From contig CAJXNM010000027.1 of the NCBI GenBank assembly GCA_913057135.1, positions 1-39,901 on the forward strand: a stretch of 39,901 bases of DNA, read 5' to 3'. A program made the translations under genes and the position numbers. The notes under the pieces are model-generated. The model saw nothing but the letters and a program-made list of their open reading frames with translations. It ran no database searches and was not told the DNA's origin. Below, one piece after another: positions 16,339 to 23,773 of this stretch (its first letter is position 1; every line of letters begins with the position of its first letter). Origin of the DNA: an uncultured Halieaceae bacterium (GTDB lineage Bacteria > Pseudomonadota > Gammaproteobacteria > Pseudomonadales > Halieaceae).

Positions 16339-17880
16339 ATGACAGAACGCGCATCAAGACGTAAGGGTGGTGGCCGTGCAGGCCGACGAGAAACACGTTC
16401 CTCAAGCAGTAGCGCAGCCCCCGCCTTTATCGAGCGCAAAATTCCCTACACAGAAATTTTGTCTGAAGAGAACCTAGCGCTTATCGAGCACAACGCTGAT
16501 CAGCTACTTGCTGAGATTGGTATCGACTTCCTCGATGACCCCGAGGTGCTCGACTTATTCCGTGACGCAGGTGCCGACATCGATGGCACTCGCGTTCGCT
16601 TTGCTCCCGGCCTGTGCCGCAGCATCATCCAAGCCACGGCCCCCAGTGAGTACGTGCAACATGCACGTAACCCCTTAAGAAGCGTCACGATTGGGGGTAA
16701 AAACACGGTATTGGTGCCCGCCTACGGCTCCCCTTTTGTTCACGACTTAGACAAGGGTCGTCGCTACGCCACCCTGGAAGACTTCCAGAACTTCGTGAAA
16801 CTGGCTTACATGGCGCCCGGCCTGCATCACTCGGGCGGAACCGTATGTGAGCCGGTCGATTTACCAGTGAACAAACGCCACTACGACATGGTGTATAGCC
16901 ACTTCAAATACAGCGATAAACCGCTGATGGGGTCGGTCACTCACCACCGACGTGCGCAAGATTCCGTCGACATGGCCAAAATTGTGTTTGGCGATGACTT
17001 TGTTGACCAAAACTGCGTGCTAACTAGTCTCATTAATGCCAATTCACCCATGGTGTTCGATGGCACCATGCTGGGCTCACTTAAGGTGTACGCCCGCAAC
17101 AATCAGGCAACGGTGGTATCACCGTTTATTCTCGCTGGCGCCATGTCGCCAGTGACAGTCACAGGAACGGTGACTCAGATTTTAGCCGAAGCTATGGCGG
17201 GTATTGCCCTAACCCAGCTAGTGCGGCCAGGCGCGCCTGTGGTGTTTGGCACCTTTGCCGCGGCCGTCTCTATGGCTACCGGCGCGCCTACGTTCGGCAC
17301 ACCCGAACCCAGTATGGTGATTTACGCCGCTGCCGCGCTGGCCCGCCGCTTAGGAGTGCCGTTTAGAAGCGGGGGGGGGCTAACCGGCTCAAAATTGCCC
17401 GATGCGCAAGCTGCCTACGAAGCTGCCAACACCCTGCAAACAGCCGCACTGGCGGGTGTGAACTTCATGCTACACACCGCGGGCTGGCTTGAAGGAGGCC
17501 TGGCGATGGGCTACGAGAAGTTCATCATGGACTGCGATCAAGCCAGTATGCTGGCAGTGCTGCTAAGCGGTGTTGATATGTCAGAGAACGCCCAAGCCAT
17601 GGACGCATTCCGCGAAATAGGGCCCGGTAAGCACTATTTGGGCTCTGCACACACACTCGCCAATTTTGAGCAGGCGTTCTATCGCTCGACGGTGGCAGAT
17701 AACAATAGCTACGAGCAATGGTCAGCCGAGGGCAGTCTCGATACCGCTAAACGCGCCAACGGCCTGTGGAAGAATATGCTGACCGAGTACGAAGCGCCCG
17801 CCCTTGACCCCGCCATTGATGAGGCCCTACAGGCCTATATGACCGAGCAAAAAGCCGCCTTCCCCGATCGGGATTATTAA
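16339..17880 (+). CDS. MttB-superfamily (trimethylamine methyltransferase family) methylamine:corrinoid methyltransferase, non-pyrrolysine
   Basis: 513 aa from ATG at 16339. The N-terminal 27 residues are basic and Ser-rich (RRKGGGRAGRRETRSSSSS). The TIM-barrel MttB domain covers about 31-505, with HHSGGTVCEPVDLPVNKRHY (163-182), SPFILAGAMSPVTVTGTVTQ (261-280), TGAPTFGTPEP (314-324) and SGGGLTGSKLPDAQAAYEA (344-362). The frame holds no internal TAG, so it cannot encode pyrrolysine. It belongs with MtgB-like homologues that demethylate quaternary amines such as glycine betaine, proline betaine or carnitine. Expected reaction: methyl transfer to the Co(I) corrinoid on the next protein. The substrate is unknown. 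First gene of the operon, with a weak ribosome site. Confidence 0.93.
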   Translation: MTERASRRKGGGRAGRRETRSSSSSAAPAFIERKIPYTEILSEENLALIEHNADQLLAEIGIDFLDDPEVLDLFRDAGADIDGTRVRFAPGLCRSIIQATAPSEYVQHARNPLRSVTIGGKNTVLVPAYGSPFVHDLDKGRRYATLEDFQNFVKLAYMAPGLHHSGGTVCEPVDLPVNKRHYDMVYSHFKYSDKPLMGSVTHHRRAQDSVDMAKIVFGDDFVDQNCVLTSLINANSPMVFDGTMLGSLKVYARNNQATVVSPFILAGAMSPVTVTGTVTQILAEAMAGIALTQLVRPGAPVVFGTFAAAVSMATGAPTFGTPEPSMVIYAAAALARRLGVPFRSGGGLTGSKLPDAQAAYEAANTLQTAALAGVNFMLHTAGWLEGGLAMGYEKFIMDCDQASMLAVLLSGVDMSENAQAMDAFREIGPGKHYLGSAHTLANFEQAFYRSTVADNNSYEQWSAEGSLDTAKRANGLWKNMLTEYEAPALDPAIDEALQAYMTEQKAAFPDRDY

Positions 17881-17902
17881 GTTTTTACACGAGGATTACC
17901 CC

Positions 17903-18601
17903 ATGTCCGATGAAGACGACATTGTTCTTGCGGAGCTTTCGGATGATGACCTGATTCTTCAGATGCACGACGATCTGTACGACGGCTTAACGGAGGAAAT
18001 TGAGGAAGGCACACAAATTTTGCTCGATAGGGGCTGGTCAGCGGAAACCGTGCTGAGCAAGGCCCTGGTCGATGGCATGACCATTGTCGGCATCGATTTT
18101 CGTGACGGTATTTTGTTCGTACCCGAAGTACTGCTCGCCGCCAATGCTATGAAAGGGGGCATGGCTATTTTGCGGCCATTGCTTGCCGAGACCGGCGCCA
18201 AGCCCATTGGGACGATGGTCATTGGTACGGTAAAAGGCGACATCCACGACATTGGCAAAAACCTGGTGGCTATGATGATGGAGGGCGCCGGTTTTGAGGT
18301 GCACGACATTGGTATTAACAATGCGGTTGAAGACTACATTGCTGCCCTAGAGCGCCACAAACCCGATATATTGGGTATGTCTGCCCTGCTCACCACCACC
18401 ATGCCTTACATGAAGGTCGTCATTGACGCCATGGTAGAGCAAGGCATACGCGACGATTACATTGTCATGGTGGGCGGTGCACCACTTAACGAGGAGTTCG
18501 GAGTGGCGGTGGGCGCCGACGCCTACTGCCGCGATGCGGCCGAGGCCGCCACCTCCGCGGTACGGCTCATTACCGAGCGCAAAGCGCTGCAGGGCGCATA
18601 A
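17903..18601 (+). CDS. methyltransferase cognate corrinoid (B12-binding) protein, MtbC1/MttC/MtgC-like
   Basis: 232 aa. Residues about 10-95 form the B12-binding cap (four-helix) domain. The Rossmann-like B12 domain follows, with KGDIHDIGKN at 111-120, where His115 is the cobalt axial ligand in the DxHxxG motif. MSALLTTTMPYM (159-170) and MVGGAPLNEEFG (189-200) complete the nucleotide-tail pocket. It shuttles methyl groups between the MttB-like enzyme and the tetrahydrofolate methyltransferase. GAGGAT precedes the ATG. It sits 22 bp after the methyltransferase gene, the usual pairing. Confidence 0.96.
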   Translation: MSDEDDIVLAELSDDDLILQMHDDLYDGLTEEIEEGTQILLDRGWSAETVLSKALVDGMTIVGIDFRDGILFVPEVLLAANAMKGGMAILRPLLAETGAKPIGTMVIGTVKGDIHDIGKNLVAMMMEGAGFEVHDIGINNAVEDYIAALERHKPDILGMSALLTTTMPYMKVVIDAMVEQGIRDDYIVMVGGAPLNEEFGVAVGADAYCRDAAEAATSAVRLITERKALQGA

Positions 18602-18607
18602 AAAAGC

Positions 18608-19318
18608 ATGGCCAACCAGCCCCATCGGAAAAACGAGCATGATCTTGGAAAGCCCGATCGTCCAAAAGATCTGCTCATAATTGCCTGTGGCGCACTCGCA
18701 AAGGAGCTTGATTGGCTACGGCGCCATCATGGTTGGCAGCATGTTGATATACAGTGCATTGATGCGGCACTGCACAACACACCAGCGCTGATCCCCGCAC
18801 GTGTGAATGCCTTACTTGAGCGGTACCACGACCACTACGCTCAAGTCTTTGTTGCATACGCCGATTGTGGCACCAGCGGCAAATTAGATGAGGTACTTAA
18901 CCGCTGGCAGGTACAACGCTTACCCGGGCCCCACTGCTATAGCGTTTTTGCGGGCCATCAGCGCTTTCGGGCACTGGCAGAAGCGGAGCCCGGCACCTTC
19001 TATCTCACCGACTTTTTAGTGCGCCACTTCAGCCGGTTGGTGATTCAAGGTCTAAAACTGGACGCCCACCCAGAGCTTATACCCCAGTTCTTTGGTCACT
19101 ACCGAAAGGTCGTGTACCTAGCTCAGCAGCCAAGCCCTGAGCTAACAGAGAAGGCCTATGCTGCTGCCAAGTGGCTAGGGCTTCCGTTAGACATCGTCAA
19201 CACAGGCGTAGAACCTCTCGCTAAAGCTTTAAACAGCCAACTGATCGCTGTGCAGCAGCAAGCCCAAACCCACTCACCACACTCTTCGCTCTCGTCTGCC
19301 GCGTATGCAACGCATTGA
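18608..19318 (+). CDS. DUF1638 protein in corrinoid methyltransferase operon
   Basis: 236 aa. DUF1638 is recognised by LLIIACGALAKELDWL (22-37), YADCGTSGKLDEVLNRW (84-100), PGPHCYSVFAGHQRF (106-120) and YLTDFLVRHF (132-141). Four Cys (27, 50, 87, 110) and His117/His140 sit in these motifs and could bind a metal or cofactor. The first 20 residues and the last 25 are low-complexity. No biochemical function is established. It is placed between the corrinoid protein and the THF methyltransferase on one transcript and overlaps the next gene by 14 bp. A role in corrinoid loading, repair or methyl-transfer assistance is possible but only inferred. Confidence 0.88.
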   Translation: MANQPHRKNEHDLGKPDRPKDLLIIACGALAKELDWLRRHHGWQHVDIQCIDAALHNTPALIPARVNALLERYHDHYAQVFVAYADCGTSGKLDEVLNRWQVQRLPGPHCYSVFAGHQRFRALAEAEPGTFYLTDFLVRHFSRLVIQGLKLDAHPELIPQFFGHYRKVVYLAQQPSPELTEKAYAAAKWLGLPLDIVNTGVEPLAKALNSQLIAVQQQAQTHSPHSSLSSAAYATH

Positions 19319-19613
19319 TGTGTATTGGCGGGATATTCCCGCTCAGGTGCTAATCAAGCGGGGCCGAGAGCGCGGTAAATATTTATTGGCGCACCGCTTT
19401 CAAGCGGCCATCGACAGGGCCGCCATGCGCGCCGGTAAAGGCGGCAGCGATGCCTACCTTGACGAGTGGCGACGAGTAACCGTTGCACTACCCGATGAGG
19501 GCACCCATGCCCAAGCGCTGGCTGAGCAGCTAGGCGCTGCTATCGAGGCGAACTACAGCGACGAACAGCTGGCCGCTTTGGTAGCCAACAAAGGTTTTGA
19601 ACCCACCCCCTAA
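19305..19613 (+). CDS. small Virulence_fact-domain protein in corrinoid methyltransferase operon
   Basis: 102 aa. The sequence VYWRDIPAQVLIKRGRERGK, then KYLLAHRFQAAIDRAAMRAG and YLDEWRRV, resembles the small domain that databases call Virulence_fact. The name is historical and says nothing about function here. The protein is basic in its first half and acidic in its second. There is no signal peptide or membrane segment, so it should be cytosolic. It starts 14 bp inside the DUF1638 gene, so the two are probably made together and may interact. Confidence 0.85.
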   Translation: MQRIDVYWRDIPAQVLIKRGRERGKYLLAHRFQAAIDRAAMRAGKGGSDAYLDEWRRVTVALPDEGTHAQALAEQLGAAIEANYSDEQLAALVANKGFEPTP

Positions 19614-19634
19614 CACCCTGCCCGGGAGATACCC

Positions 19635-20540
19635 ATGACCACAACTACCATCAGCTCTGCCACCCGCGAAGTGCACATTGGTTTCGATAAACCCTTCGTG
19701 GTCATTGGCGAGCGCATCAATCCCACCGGGCGCAAAATACTGGCAGAGGAAATGAAGAACGGGGACTACAGCCGTGTGGAAGCCGATGCCTTGGCGCAAG
19801 TAGCGGCCGGCGCTCATATGCTTGATGTGAACGCAGGCATTCCGCTGGCCGATGAACCACGCATTCTGGCCGAAGCGGTGCAACTGGTGCAGTCAGTGAC
19901 CGATGTACCCCTTAGCATCGACTCATCCATTATCGAGGCGCTGGAAGCGGGTTTATCGGTGTATCAGGGCAAGGCCTTGGTGAACTCGGTAACCGGGGAA
20001 GATGAGGTGCTAGAGCGGGTTCTGCCTCTGGTCGCTAAATACGGCGCTGCAGTGGTAGCCATCTCTAATGATGAAACCGGCATCTCGGAAGACCCCGCAG
20101 TGCGCTTTGCAGTGGCCAAAAAGATTGTAGAGCGCGCCGCCGATTACGGCATTCACCACAGCGATGTGGTGGTAGACCCGTTAGTCATGCCCATTGGCGC
20201 TATCAATAGCTCGGGGGTTCAGGTGATGGATTTGGTGCGCAGGTTGCGCACCGATTTAAAGGTAAATACCACCTGCGGCGCTTCGAATGTGAGCTTTGGT
20301 TTACCCAATCGGAACGGCATTAATGCAGCGTTTCTTACCATGGCCATGGCCGCCGGTATGACCTCGGCCATTACCAGCCCGCTGCATGCTGAAGTCATGC
20401 AAGCGGTACGCGGTGGCGATGTGATGCTAGGCCACGACCCCGATTGCGCTAACTGGATACGCGCCTACCGCGAACCCGCCCCCGAAGGCGCGGGTCGAGG
20501 CGGTCGCGGTGGTCGCGCGAGCCGCCGGCGCAGCGCCTAA
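19635..20540 (+). CDS. methyltetrahydrofolate:corrinoid methyltransferase (DHPS-fold, MtgA/MtvA-like)
   Basis: 301 aa pterin-binding TIM barrel: VIGERINPTGRK (23-34), DVNAGIP (64-70), SIDSS (94-98), NSVTGEDE (117-124), DPLVMPIGAI (181-190) and NTTCGASNVSFGLPNRNGIN (211-230). In the paired systems it moves the methyl group from methyl-Co(III) corrinoid to tetrahydrofolate, giving 5-methyl-THF. The family without flanking genes can be mistaken for dihydropteroate synthase, but context and the GASNVSFGLPNR motif argue for the corrinoid type. The last 16 residues form an unusual Gly/Arg-rich tail (GRGGRGGRASRRRSA). GGAG precedes the ATG. Confidence 0.94.
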   Translation: MTTTTISSATREVHIGFDKPFVVIGERINPTGRKILAEEMKNGDYSRVEADALAQVAAGAHMLDVNAGIPLADEPRILAEAVQLVQSVTDVPLSIDSSIIEALEAGLSVYQGKALVNSVTGEDEVLERVLPLVAKYGAAVVAISNDETGISEDPAVRFAVAKKIVERAADYGIHHSDVVVDPLVMPIGAINSSGVQVMDLVRRLRTDLKVNTTCGASNVSFGLPNRNGINAAFLTMAMAAGMTSAITSPLHAEVMQAVRGGDVMLGHDPDCANWIRAYREPAPEGAGRGGRGGRASRRRSA

Positions 20541-20557
20541 AGTCGGTCGCCAGTAAC

Positions 20558-22594
20558 ATGGACAGCACAGCAGACGCTGAGGCGAATGGCCAGATTCAGG
20601 CGGTCTTTTTGCCATCGGGCCGTCGGGGTAGCTTCCCCGTCGGTACCCCCCTAGTCACCGCAGCGCGCAGTTTAGGAGTAGACCTGGATTCGGTGTGTGG
20701 TGGCCGGGGCTTGTGTGGTCGCTGCCAAGTACGCTGTATGACCGGCGCTTTCCCTAAGCATGGCATCCAATCGGATCAGAGCCATTTGTCGCCACTGACG
20801 GCGACTGAAATCAAATACAGTCAGCGCAAGGGACCCTTACCTGATGATGTGCGCCTTGGCTGTCACACCGAGCTAATGGGCGATGTGGTCATCGATGTTC
20901 CCCCCGAAAGCCAGCTGCACCGTCAAATTGTGCGCAAAGAAGCGGAATACCGGGACATCCACTTAGATACCGCCACACGGCTCTATTACGTTGAGGTGCC
21001 CGAACCCTCTCTTGAGCAGGCCATCAGTGAACAGGCGCTATTGCAGCAGGCACTGACCGACGAATGGGGGCTACCCTCACTCAGCATGCCTTGCTCTGTA
21101 GCCCCCACACTGCAAGCCGCGCTCGCCAGCGGCGATAGGGGCGTGACCGTGGCGGTGTTCCAATCGAAGGAGATGATTGGCCTATGGCCGGGTCTCTTCG
21201 ATCGGCCTCGAGGTGTAGCCATTGATGTGGGTTCTACCACCGTGGCCGCCCATTTATGTGATTTGAATACCGGTGAGGTGATCGCCACGGCGGGTGTTAT
21301 GAACCCCCAAATACGCTTTGGGGAAGATCTGATGAGTCGGGTGTCCTATGTGATGATGGAGCCCGAGGGCGCCGAGCAGATGACCGCAGCCATTCGGGAA
21401 TGCCTTAACGAGTTACTACAAAGCCTGAGTCAAGAGGTGGCCGGCGTAATCTCGGACATTCTAGAGATTACCCTAGTGGCCAACCCCATCATGCACCACT
21501 TAGTGCTGGGCATTAATCCCATTAACCTAGGTGGTGCGCCATTTGCCCTGACCATTGATAGCGCTTGCACCCTTCGGGCCGCTGACATTGGTATTAATAT
21601 TCAGGCAGAGGGTAAGGTGTATACCCTGCCCTGTATTGCCGGACACGTAGGTGCCGATGCCGCAGGAGTCATTCTGGCCGAGCAGCCCTACGAGCAAGAA
21701 GAGCTAAGCCTACTGGTAGATGTGGGCACCAACGCAGAGATCGTGTTAGGTAACAGCAAGCGGTTGCTTGCTTGCTCGAGTCCTACGGGGCCTGCTTTTG
21801 AAGGCGCTCAAATCAGCAGTGGACAGCGAGCTACCGTGGGCGCCATTGAGCGGGTGCGCATCGACCCGGATACCCTTGAACCCAATATCAAAATTATTGG
21901 TTCAGAGCTGTGGTCGGCGGAGCCCGATTTCGAGCTCGCCATTGCCGATACCGGGGTTACTGGTATTTGCGGCTCGGGCATTATCGAAGTAATTGCCGAG
22001 ATGTTTTTGGCGGGCATTGTGAGCGCCGACGGGGTTATTAACGGTGCCCTTGCCGATAAAACGCCTCGCATACGCCAGCAGGGCCGCACCTGGTGCTACG
22101 TGTTGTACACCCCACCACAGGACGGCCCGCGCCGCGAAGTGATCATTACCCAAAATGACATTCGGCAGATACAGCTAGCCAAAGCGGCCCTTTATGCAGG
22201 CATCAAGCTGCTCATGGACGAACTTGGGGTGACTACCGTTGACCGCATTCGATTAGCAGGCGCCTTTGGTAGTCATATTAGTGTGACCCACGCCATGGTG
22301 CTGGGACTCATACCCGATTGCCCACTCGAGAATGTGTCGCCGGCGGGTAATGCGGCGTCGATGGGGGCGCGCATTGCCTTACTCGATGAGACCGCAAGGC
22401 CTGCTATTGAGCGGGTGGTCACCCATATTGAACGGGTAGAAACTGCCACGGCCGATGCCTTCCAGCACTACTTTGTCGAGGCTATGGCGTTCCCTCACAA
22501 CAGTGATCCGTTCACGAATTTATTTGAAGTAGTACGACAACCTGTTGTGAGGGAGGTGGCATCGGCTGGAAAACGGCGGCGTCGAGCCAAGTAA
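20558..22594 (+). CDS. reductive activator of corrinoid proteins (RACo/RamA-like ASKHA protein with 2Fe-2S domain)
   Basis: 678 aa. The N-terminal plant-type [2Fe-2S] ferredoxin domain has Cys47, Cys53 and Cys56 (SVCGGRGLCGRC) and Cys102 (RLGCHT). A linker follows, then an ASKHA-type ATPase domain starting at GVAIDVGSTTVAAHL (219-233), with LLVDVGTNAEIVLGN and the DUF4445-type C-terminus. It uses ATP and a low-potential electron to return inactive Co(II) to Co(I) on the corrinoid protein. It has a single 2Fe-2S cluster rather than the two 4Fe-4S of archaeal RamA. The C-terminus ends in the basic tail GKRRRRAK. Last gene of the operon. Confidence 0.94.
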   Translation: MDSTADAEANGQIQAVFLPSGRRGSFPVGTPLVTAARSLGVDLDSVCGGRGLCGRCQVRCMTGAFPKHGIQSDQSHLSPLTATEIKYSQRKGPLPDDVRLGCHTELMGDVVIDVPPESQLHRQIVRKEAEYRDIHLDTATRLYYVEVPEPSLEQAISEQALLQQALTDEWGLPSLSMPCSVAPTLQAALASGDRGVTVAVFQSKEMIGLWPGLFDRPRGVAIDVGSTTVAAHLCDLNTGEVIATAGVMNPQIRFGEDLMSRVSYVMMEPEGAEQMTAAIRECLNELLQSLSQEVAGVISDILEITLVANPIMHHLVLGINPINLGGAPFALTIDSACTLRAADIGINIQAEGKVYTLPCIAGHVGADAAGVILAEQPYEQEELSLLVDVGTNAEIVLGNSKRLLACSSPTGPAFEGAQISSGQRATVGAIERVRIDPDTLEPNIKIIGSELWSAEPDFELAIADTGVTGICGSGIIEVIAEMFLAGIVSADGVINGALADKTPRIRQQGRTWCYVLYTPPQDGPRREVIITQNDIRQIQLAKAALYAGIKLLMDELGVTTVDRIRLAGAFGSHISVTHAMVLGLIPDCPLENVSPAGNAASMGARIALLDETARPAIERVVTHIERVETATADAFQHYFVEAMAFPHNSDPFTNLFEVVRQPVVREVASAGKRRRRAK

Positions 22595-22609
22595 AGCTAC
22601 TGCCAATCC

Positions 22610-23644
22610 TTAGCCATCGGCAACTTTTTCCTCACCCACAGCAGCACCAACCAAGCGCATATCGTTTGCGCCTTGCTTGCGATCGGTACGCGGCGACACG
22701 CCCATATACTTACGATAGCATCGACTAAAGTGCGTGGTGGAGGTAAAACCACACATGGCTGTAATTTCAACTATCGAACGAGAACTCTGCTTAATGAGCC
22801 GTCGGGCCCGCTGGAGCCTCAGCATCAAATAATGTCTCGATGGCGTGCAGTGCAAATTCTGTAAAAACAAGCGCTCCAGCTGACGCACAGACAAACCCAC
22901 AAGATTAGCCAACTCCGACAACGGGATCGGCTCCTCAAGATTAGCTTCCATCAACTGTAAAACTTCGGTCAATTTCGGCTTTAGCGCTACCCGCCGAGAC
23001 CACATTGGCACCACTTGAGGCTCGTAATCGGCCCTGTGCCGGTCACAGACGAGCATATCCGCAATCGCCTCCACAAGAGCTTCTGGGTGACTTTGGCCTA
23101 TGTAAGCCAACATCATGTGTAGCGAGACCGCGCCCCCTGAAGCCGTAATCCGATCTTGATCAATCGTGTAGATTTGGCTGTTGCAAAGCACATCGGGAAA
23201 CTGTTCCGTCATTGGTGTAAGACAATCCCAATGCACGCTGCACTGATGACCATCGAGTAAACCCGCGGCTGCCAAGACGTAGGACCCGGTGCACACTGCG
23301 CCCAATTTGGTACCTGCTCGGGCTTGCTTACGGAGCCATTGAATATCGGCTTTGTCTACCTGCTGCTCAATATTGACCCCTCCAACGACAATGACAAGAT
23401 CGAAGGGCGTGTCGTTGCCGAGGTGGCCGTCTAAGGCCACGCGAATACCATCACTGGACGTAACCGACCCATCTTCAGCACCACCCAGTAAGGTCCACTC
23501 GTAAAGAGTTTCATTGGTCAGCAGGTTGGCGATGCGCAGGGGGTCTATAGCACTGGACAGTGAAAGCAAGGTGAAGTTTTCAACCAATAGAAAACCGATC
23601 CTCTGCTGAGTGGCCTGCCTATTAAGCGGCATAAAATTTTGCAT
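22610..23644 (-). CDS. GlxA/GbdR-type transcriptional regulator (DJ-1/PfpI sensor plus AraC HTH)
   Basis: 344 aa from ATG at 23644, preceded by AGGTG. ATG at 23656 contains that site within its second to fourth codons and is less likely. The N-terminal GATase-1/DJ-1-like domain includes GAVCTGSYVLAAAGLLDG. The C-terminal AraC domain includes IPLSELANLVGLSVRQLERL and SIVEITAMCGFTSTTHFSRC. Relatives such as GbdR and CdhR sense glycine betaine/dimethylglycine or carnitine. It converges on the corrinoid operon with a 15-bp gap. It probably controls that operon, which hints at a methylated-amine inducer. Both claims are inference. Confidence 0.9.
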   Translation of the reverse strand: MQNFMPLNRQATQQRIGFLLVENFTLLSLSSAIDPLRIANLLTNETLYEWTLLGGAEDGSVTSSDGIRVALDGHLGNDTPFDLVIVVGGVNIEQQVDKADIQWLRKQARAGTKLGAVCTGSYVLAAAGLLDGHQCSVHWDCLTPMTEQFPDVLCNSQIYTIDQDRITASGGAVSLHMMLAYIGQSHPEALVEAIADMLVCDRHRADYEPQVVPMWSRRVALKPKLTEVLQLMEANLEEPIPLSELANLVGLSVRQLERLFLQNLHCTPSRHYLMLRLQRARRLIKQSSRSIVEITAMCGFTSTTHFSRCYRKYMGVSPRTDRKQGANDMRLVGAAVGEEKVADG

Positions 23645-23773
23645 ACGGCACCTCATGCATCTGATTATTTTTAGTGGAGGGTAAGTGACACCCGACCCAG
23701 TATCAACATCAGCTGACCATCACATAGGTGCAACGCGGAAAATTTATTGAACGGTGGAGTGTCTCGGAAACTT

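What the first reader, a model, noticed from the sequence alone, without database searches (positions are those of the whole stretch)
16339..23644. Six-gene corrinoid methyltransferase operon with unknown substrate in an apparently aerobic gammaproteobacterium
The sequence directly shows, on one strand with short gaps or overlaps, an MttB-family methyltransferase, a corrinoid protein with DIHDIGKN, a pterin-binding methyltransferase and a 2Fe-2S/ASKHA corrinoid activator. These are all parts needed to move a methyl group from a methylated amine to tetrahydrofolate. Such systems are best characterised in anaerobic archaea and acetogens, because the Co(I) state is oxygen-sensitive. The rest of the window (cytochrome c, ACADs, PQQ-type enzyme, membrane oxygenase) points to aerobic life. 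The demethylated substrate is unknown, and no transporter or methyl-THF oxidising gene is adjacent, so the pathway has not been closed.
Basis: partly seen in the sequence, partly recalled or inferred. Interest (0 to 1): 0.82.

Follow-up and report, generated by a model that had tools for sequence, protein, structure and literature searches.

The report
Aerobic B12-dependent glycine betaine demethylase operon
This is a bacterial gene cluster that probably uses vitamin B12 to strip a methyl group from the osmolyte glycine betaine in air, a kind of system already described in 2025 in other marine bacteria, together with one small conserved partner protein of unexplained role.

Summary
The six-gene cluster is real: MttB-family methyltransferase, corrinoid protein, DUF1638, PF13769 protein, pterin methyltransferase and RACo-type activator, 16339-22594 (+), facing a GbdR-like regulator. 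The window MttB is 44% identical to authentic MtgB and keeps four docking-predicted GBT residues. It nests among Halieaceae orthologues, sister to 17 Porticoccaceae/SAR92-type ones; 11 of the 17 lie with DMG-dehydrogenase-like, sarcosine-oxidase, GbdR-like and formyl-THF-ligase genes. The same genome encodes SoxBDAG, MetF, a BCCT transporter and two haem-copper oxidases. It has full-length MetH and no separate homocysteine module, so here the system is probably catabolic only. Against: a GbcA-like oxygenase (below cut-off) also exists, and no activity was tested. Less known: the 102-aa PF13769 protein, labelled 'virulence factor', has hits in 38 of 39 relatives and co-occurs with MttB over 194 genomes; no paper in the library contains its accession. 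Verdict: new member of a known kind, modest interest.

The parts
16339..17880 (+). MtgB-like (MttB superfamily, PF06253) methyltransferase, 513 aa from the ATG at 16339
   Evidence: PF06253 746 bits; PDB 4yyc 732 bits, MtgB 2qne/9yce 429/428 bits, pyrrolysine MttB 120 bits; Y129 N233 R343 H379 at the docking-predicted GBT positions
17903..18601 (+). MtgC-like corrinoid protein with DIHDIGKN, 232 aa
   Evidence: PF02310 and PF02607; best NCBIfam model MtgC_2, 195 bits, below its cut-off of 370
18608..19318 (+). DUF1638 protein, 236 aa; probable corrinoid-reactivation partner
   Evidence: PF07796 98 bits; homologue co-fit with the methionine synthase genes in Phaeobacter (PMC5764234)
19305..19613 (+). 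PF13769 'Virulence_fact' small protein, 102 aa, overlapping the DUF1638 gene by 14 bp; role unknown, conserved companion
   Evidence: PF13769 69 bits; tblastn hit in 38 of 39 relatives that have MtgD and RACo-like hits; 194-genome profile
19635..20540 (+). MtgD-like methylcorrinoid:tetrahydrofolate methyltransferase, 301 aa
   Evidence: PF00809 107 bits; NCBIfam PRK07535 364 bits, cut-off 259; PDB 2yci 146 bits
20558..22594 (+). RACo/DUF4445-type ASKHA corrinoid activator with N-terminal 2Fe-2S domain, 678 aa
   Evidence: RACo_C_ter 303 bits plus middle, linker and Fer2; PDB 3zyy 271 bits
22610..23656 (-). GbdR-like (DJ-1/PfpI + AraC HTH) transcriptional regulator, convergent to the operon
   Evidence: NCBIfam GbdR 445 bits, below its cut-off of 480

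Best explanation
The operon encodes an aerobic MtgBCD-type demethylase. MtgB (16339-17880) moves one methyl group from glycine betaine to Co(I) of the corrinoid protein MtgC, leaving dimethylglycine. MtgD passes the methyl from methyl-Co(III) to tetrahydrofolate. When Co(I) is oxidised to Co(II), the RACo-type ASKHA protein, helped by DUF1638 and probably the PF13769 protein, restores it with ATP and an electron from its 2Fe-2S cluster. Dimethylglycine and sarcosine are then demethylated by DMGDH-like enzymes and SoxBDAG encoded elsewhere, methyl-THF is oxidised through MetF and further C1 enzymes, and the convergent GbdR-like protein is the likely regulator. Shown here: gene content, homology, orthology, pocket residues, synteny. 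Inferred from published homologues: every catalytic step, the substrate, the reactivation, the regulation.
For: Family hits. The window MttB is 44% identical to D. hafniense MtgB and 65% to 4yyc. It carries YNRH at the four positions that PMC6855144 predicts by docking; 90 of 90 other rows at or above 60% identity have YNRH, against 5 of 28 below 60%, one of the five being MtgB itself. Tree: inside a 14-row clade of Halieaceae and HTCC2080 (SH-aLRT 99) and a 31-row clade with a 17-row Porticoccaceae/SAR92-type group (100). In 11 of those 17 rows the operon sits in one neighbourhood with Fhs, DMGDH-like, GbdR-like and SoxB genes (at least 5 of the other 6 lie on short contig pieces or in a locus whose neighbours I did not map). 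In L071 these labels were checked: FTHFS 893 bits, GbdR model 436 bits, SoxB 726 bits over its cut-off of 529, DAO+GCV_T fusion. The genome's own SoxB is 74% identical to that of L071 and L061. Own SoxA 1454 bits, SoxB 714, SoxD 121, SoxG Pfam 143, BCCT 470, formate dehydrogenase alpha 887. Precedent: Ruegeria mtgC and mtgD mutants fail to grow on GBT even with methionine (PMC12478193).
Against: No enzyme assay. The YNRH residues come from docking, not a ligand-bound structure. In R. pomeroyi two PF06253 proteins rise on GBT, and I saw no mtgB mutant in the parts and passages read, so the MtgB step is not genetically proven there. The genome also holds a GbcA-like Rieske oxygenase (488 bits, cut-off 670) and a GbcB-like reductase above its cut-off (633 vs 500), which could demethylate GBT with O2. 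No DMG or sarcosine gene lies in the window, and the DMGDH-like proteins have only generic domain hits. MtgC, pyrrolysine-MttB, AcsV and GbdR models all score below their curated cut-offs. MtpB, MtcB and MtyB were not available for the tree.
Confidence: 0.72

Rival explanations
1. Same machinery, other substrate: the MttB-like protein demethylates another quaternary amine or sulfonium compound (proline betaine, carnitine, gamma-butyrobetaine, trigonelline, DMSP), while GBT is handled by a GbcAB-like oxygenase.
For: MttB-superfamily members differ in substrate (MtpB, MtyB, MtcB and others; PMC12478193 discussion). The genome has a GbcA-like oxygenase and a GbcB-like reductase on contig C6, within about 6 kb of SoxB.
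Against: That oxygenase is below the GbcA cut-off (486-488 vs 670) and matches 3n0q and 3vca/4qup at 478 and 458 bits; 3vca/4qup are, from recall, the stachydrine demethylase Stc2, so C6 may be a proline-betaine route. Orthologues of the window MttB at 77-85% identity sit with DMGDH-like and sarcosine oxidase genes. YNRH pocket conserved. The neighbouring regulator is GbdR-like.
Confidence: 0.2
2. The cluster mainly makes methionine: MtgC and MtgD act with a homocysteine module as a split methionine synthase, as in Phaeobacter and Ruegeria.
For: Homology of the B12, pterin, DUF1638 and RamA-like parts to that system (PMC5764234; PMC12478193).
Against: PF02574 hits only once in the genome, inside a full MetH with its own reactivation domain (404 bits), so no separate MtgE was found. 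An MttB gene heads the operon. A core-MetE-like protein does exist, so a corrinoid-fed core synthase is not formally excluded.
Confidence: 0.05
3. Trimethylamine methyltransferase in the strict sense (pyrrolysine MttB).
For: Pfam family name only.
Against: Open frame without an in-frame amber codon; TIGR02369 262 bits vs cut-off 525; 25% identity to the pyrrolysine enzyme, which has FCYY instead of YNRH.
Confidence: 0.01

Closest known systems
Aerobic MtgBCD with RamA-like and DUF1638 proteins of Ruegeria pomeroyi and other marine Proteobacteria (Mausz et al. 2025, PMC12478193; outline, parts 1-4 of 6 and passages seen)
   Same: Same modules, aerobic marine hosts; Gammaproteobacteria are named among carriers, and co-location with later GBT steps, even in operons, is reported.
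   Different: Here the listed parts plus a PF13769 gene form one operon ('virulence' does not occur in that paper's main text). The genome has MetH and no MtgE; that paper finds 108 of 156 MtgBCD genomes without metH and says carriers of both are typically Hyphomicrobiales, SAR324 and certain Alphaproteobacteria. No metF gene beside mtgD here.
MtgB/MtgC/MtgA of Desulfitobacterium hafniense (2qne, 9yce)
   Same: GBT:corrinoid methyltransferase family, same four docking-predicted residues.
   Different: 44% identity; anaerobe; its acceptor enzyme MtgA is said to lack sequence identity with known structures (abstract start in listing), while the window MtgD aligns with 2yci at 146 bits.
4yyc, 'putative trimethylamine methyltransferase' (Sinorhizobium meliloti by recall)
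   Same: 65% identity, same 91-row clade.
   Different: The record name seen gives no tested function.
Split methionine synthase with RamA-like and DUF1638 proteins of Phaeobacter inhibens (PMC5764234, passages seen)
   Same: Homologous corrinoid, pterin and reactivation proteins.
   Different: Makes methionine; 'virulence factor' does not occur in the main text and no MttB is mentioned in the passages seen.

Membership tests
Aerobic MtgBCD GBT demethylase | PF06253 protein of the MtgB type without pyrrolysine | tested here: met
Aerobic MtgBCD GBT demethylase | Separate corrinoid protein (PF02310) and pterin-binding methyltransferase (PF00809) | tested here: met
   both in the operon
Aerobic MtgBCD GBT demethylase | RamA-like/DUF4445 activator and DUF1638 | tested here: met
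Aerobic MtgBCD GBT demethylase | Later steps (DMG and sarcosine demethylation) encoded | tested here: inconclusive
   Sarcosine oxidase met: SoxA, SoxB, SoxD over NCBIfam cut-offs, SoxG over Pfam's but 135 vs 144 in NCBIfam. DMG step: two DAO+GCV_T fusions, no specific model
Aerobic MtgBCD GBT demethylase | Dedicated metF next to mtgD (as in Ruegeria) | tested here: not met
   22 bp or less between neighbours around mtgD; single PF02219 MetF at C62 beside an S-adenosylhomocysteinase; a 7xg9-type MTHFR at C10. Not defining: also absent in some relatives
Aerobic MtgBCD GBT demethylase | Activity on GBT | not testable with these tools
   needs assay or mutant
Pyrrolysine trimethylamine methyltransferase MttB | In-frame UAG and TIGR02369 cut-off | tested here: not met
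   (262 of 525 bits)
Split methionine synthase (MtgCDE) | Separate homocysteine-binding PF02574 protein | tested here: not met
   one PF02574 hit in the genome, within MetH
GbcAB GBT monooxygenase (elsewhere in genome) | GbcA model above its curated cut-off | tested here: not met
   best 488 bits vs 670; GbcB-like is above its cut-off, 633 vs 500
GbdR regulator | NCBIfam GbdR equivalog cut-off | tested here: not met
   445 bits vs 480: related, not assignable

The most novel reading that the evidence does not exclude
The small PF13769 protein is a dedicated, previously unrecognised accessory part (with DUF1638 and the RACo-type activator) that loads, shields or re-reduces the corrinoid and lets Co(I) methyl transfer run in air; its database name 'virulence factor' is wrong for this lineage.
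Probability: 0.4. Interest if true: 0.55.

Novelty: new member of a known kind. Interest (0 to 1): 0.36.

Why it matters
It adds a Halieaceae-like gammaproteobacterium that keeps its own MetH to the carriers of the aerobic B12-dependent glycine betaine route, separating the catabolic role from the methionine role that overlaps in Ruegeria. It also offers a compact operon in which the unexplained accessory proteins DUF1638 and PF13769 can be tested directly for how an oxygen-sensitive Co(I) enzyme is kept running in aerobic cells.

Tried and rejected
Upstream footprint: the 200 bp before mtgB in the window and 11 Halieaceae/HTCC2080 loci show no convincing shared motif by eye. Fold searches: DUF1638 (pLDDT 87.3, pTM 0.78) and PF13769 (pLDDT 93.6, pTM 0.83) gave no PDB match at E <= 0.001 (best 2.3e-3 at query TM 0.25, and 0.61), so no mechanism can be read from them. 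Redundancy with GbcAB: first a strong objection, weakened when the oxygenase proved below cut-off and also close to 3vca/4qup, not removed. MttB and GbcA-like genes (E <= 1e-100) are neither linked nor mutually exclusive in the 194-genome draw: 16 and 29 genomes, 3 shared, Fisher p 0.71. The MTHFR-like protein in the metF slot of some relatives looked new, since the members of L015 and L072 have no NCBIfam hit and that of L015 no Pfam hit at the thresholds used, but its family matches MTHFR 7xg9 at 238 bits. CobQ (TIGR00313) has no hit in the genome: suggests B12 salvage, one marker only. Paper searches, 10 of 10 used: 'PF13769' is in 0 papers, 'DUF1638' in 3.
Full report
Observation. The six + strand ORFs are present with gaps of 22, 6, -14, 21 and 17 bp. 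Pfam places them as MTTB, a two-domain corrinoid protein, DUF1638, PF13769, a pterin-binding methyltransferase and a RACo-type activator with a 2Fe-2S N-terminus. A GbdR-like regulator converges on the operon at 22610-23656 (445 bits against a cut-off of 480).

What the proteins are. Against solved structures the MttB-like protein scores 732 bits with 4yyc, 429 and 428 with 2qne and 9yce (9yce is named glycine betaine methyltransferase; PMC6855144 calls 2qne D. hafniense MtgB) and 120 with pyrrolysine MttB. The frame has no internal stop. PMC6855144 (passages) predicts by docking that Y94, N199, R309 and H345 of MtgB may meet GBT. I inferred a one-residue offset between that numbering and chain 9yce, because only then do all four residue types fit; the window then has Y129, N233, R343, H379. 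All 90 other rows with at least 60% identity have YNRH; among 28 rows below 60% only 5 do, MtgB among them; of the other 23, one (L035) keeps the tyrosine (YNRQ), the rest do not. The rows are related, so this describes subgroups and is not a statistical test.

Phylogeny and neighbourhood. The nearest are Luminiphilus and other Halieaceae (84-88% for L049-L060 and L062), then Porticoccaceae/SAR92-type records (77-85%); one further Halieaceae record, L084, is at 72%. The tree (quick method, SH-aLRT only, midpoint root for drawing) puts the window in a 14-row clade (99), a 31-row clade with 17 Porticoccaceae/SAR92-type rows (100) and a 91-row clade with 4yyc (96). In 11 of those 17 (L061, L063, L064, L065, L067, L068, L071, L072, L073, L075, L077) the order is Fhs, DMGDH-like, MttB, MtgC, DUF1638, PF13769 (not called as an ORF in L064 and L073, but found by tblastn), MetV-MetF or an MTHFR-like gene, MtgD, RACo-like, GbdR-like, SoxB. 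HMM checks in L071 bear the labels out: formate-THF ligase 893 bits, a DAO+GCV_T fusion, MetV-type DUF5981 89 bits, MTHFR 129 bits, GbdR model 436 bits (below its cut-off), SoxB 726 bits. This looks like a GBT-to-glycine set. Of 39 loci with both MtgD and RACo-like hits by tblastn, 38 have PF13769, 36 DUF1638, 34 MtgC, 28 MetF, 24 DMGDH-like and 17 SoxB hits. The ORF-based count in the same call, with 37 such loci, is lower (27 with PF13769, 33 with DUF1638): ORF calling missed small or overlapping genes, and some loci end nearby.

The rest of the genome. G000 has 2.86 Mb in 103 contigs, 97.7% complete by the tool's figures; the window is the whole of contig C27. It has one PF06253 gene, one PF02219 MetF, MetH with its activation domain and no other PF02574 protein, SoxB, SoxD, SoxA and SoxG in a row with a serine dehydratase, two further DAO+GCV_T fusions, a formate dehydrogenase alpha subunit, one BCCT transporter, two haem-copper oxidase subunits and no CobQ hit. 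Its SoxB is 74% identical to those of L061 and L071; its nearest DMGDH-like protein only 37%. So the later steps have candidate genes, not next to the operon. Against my reading, a GbcA-like oxygenase lies on contig C6 (488 bits, below 670) and a GbcB-like reductase above its cut-off. The oxygenase also matches 3n0q (478 bits) and 3vca/4qup (458 bits). From recall the last two are the stachydrine demethylase, and the DapA-like, aldehyde-dehydrogenase and amine-oxidase-like neighbours would fit proline or hydroxyproline betaine breakdown. I did not settle this.

Accessory proteins. Across the same 194 same-order genomes, MTTB is in 16, PF13769 in 15 and DUF1638 in 13. MTTB and PF13769 share 13 (Fisher p 9.7e-16; 12 shared and p 1.0e-14 without the own genome; not corrected for relatedness). 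By comparing the lists, all 13 DUF1638 genomes have MTTB; 12 of them also have PF13769, and in those 12 the two domain hits are 38-187 bp apart. Exceptions: G010, G052 and G082 have MTTB without PF13769 (the last two 75% and 87% complete); G164 has MTTB and PF13769 but no DUF1638 hit; G017 and G092 have weak PF13769 hits (40 and 38 bits) without MTTB. Among 14 control genomes PF13769 rings only in Bacillus subtilis, where MTTB does not ring, while DUF1638 and MTTB ring only in Methanosarcina acetivorans: PF13769 is thus not universal to corrinoid systems, and its domain has other uses. Both proteins fold confidently in AlphaFold2 but match nothing in the PDB at E <= 0.001. No paper in the held library contains 'PF13769', and the 2025 paper's main text does not contain 'virulence'; a paper using another name for the gene could have been missed.

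What is known. Mausz et al. 2025 (PMC12478193; outline, parts 1-4 of 6 and passages) showed by proteomics and by mtgC and mtgD mutants that aerobic Ruegeria pomeroyi needs MtgCD to use GBT and to make methionine, that two PF06253 proteins and RamA-like and DUF1638 proteins rise with it, that carriers include Gammaproteobacteria, and that about 70% of carriers lack MetH. Price et al. 2018 (PMC5764234, passages) tied RamA-like and DUF1638 proteins to a split methionine synthase and offered no specific function for DUF1638. Thus the system in the window is a member of a published kind. Its particular features are the one-operon layout, MetH without a homocysteine module, the empty metF slot (no MetF or MTHFR-like hit by tblastn in L049, L050, L056, L058, L059 either) and the PF13769 gene.

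Limits. No chemistry was tested. The taxonomic name of the genome was not obtained; 'Halieaceae-like' rests on the MttB tree. The six other listed genomes of its own family lack MTTB, so the operon is patchy there. The relatives were chosen by similarity to MttB, so synteny counts describe that sample only.

Noticed in passing
In the seven named loci it lies beside or near DMGDH-like flavoprotein genes, in L051, L052, L053 and L060 upstream of the mtg operon; the neighbours of L034 were not examined. Substrate unknown.
   Followed up: partly
L072, L073, L075, L077, L082, L087: Between the PF13769 gene and mtgD lies, instead of MetV-MetF, an MTHFR-like protein of the 7xg9 type: apparent replacement of one methylene-THF reductase kind by another.
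   Followed up: partly
L015:9121-11308 (G000:C10): DmdA-like protein (375 bits, cut-off 410) followed by a 7xg9-type MTHFR without Pfam or NCBIfam hit at the thresholds used: a possible second methyl-THF source (DMSP?) and oxidiser.
   Followed up: partly
L011:12505-13536 (-) (G000:C6): Core-MetE-like protein (PF01717 only) next to the serine dehydratase gene that follows SoxBDAG; it could be a folate-independent methionine synthase.
   Followed up: no
L013:4851-12360 (G000:C26): Enolase-superfamily protein (cis-3-hydroxy-L-proline dehydratase model 330 bits, cut-off 500), aldehyde dehydrogenase and a Rieske oxygenase closest to carnitine monooxygenase (207 bits), near a DMGDH-like gene: perhaps another betaine pathway.
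   Followed up: partly
   Followed up: no
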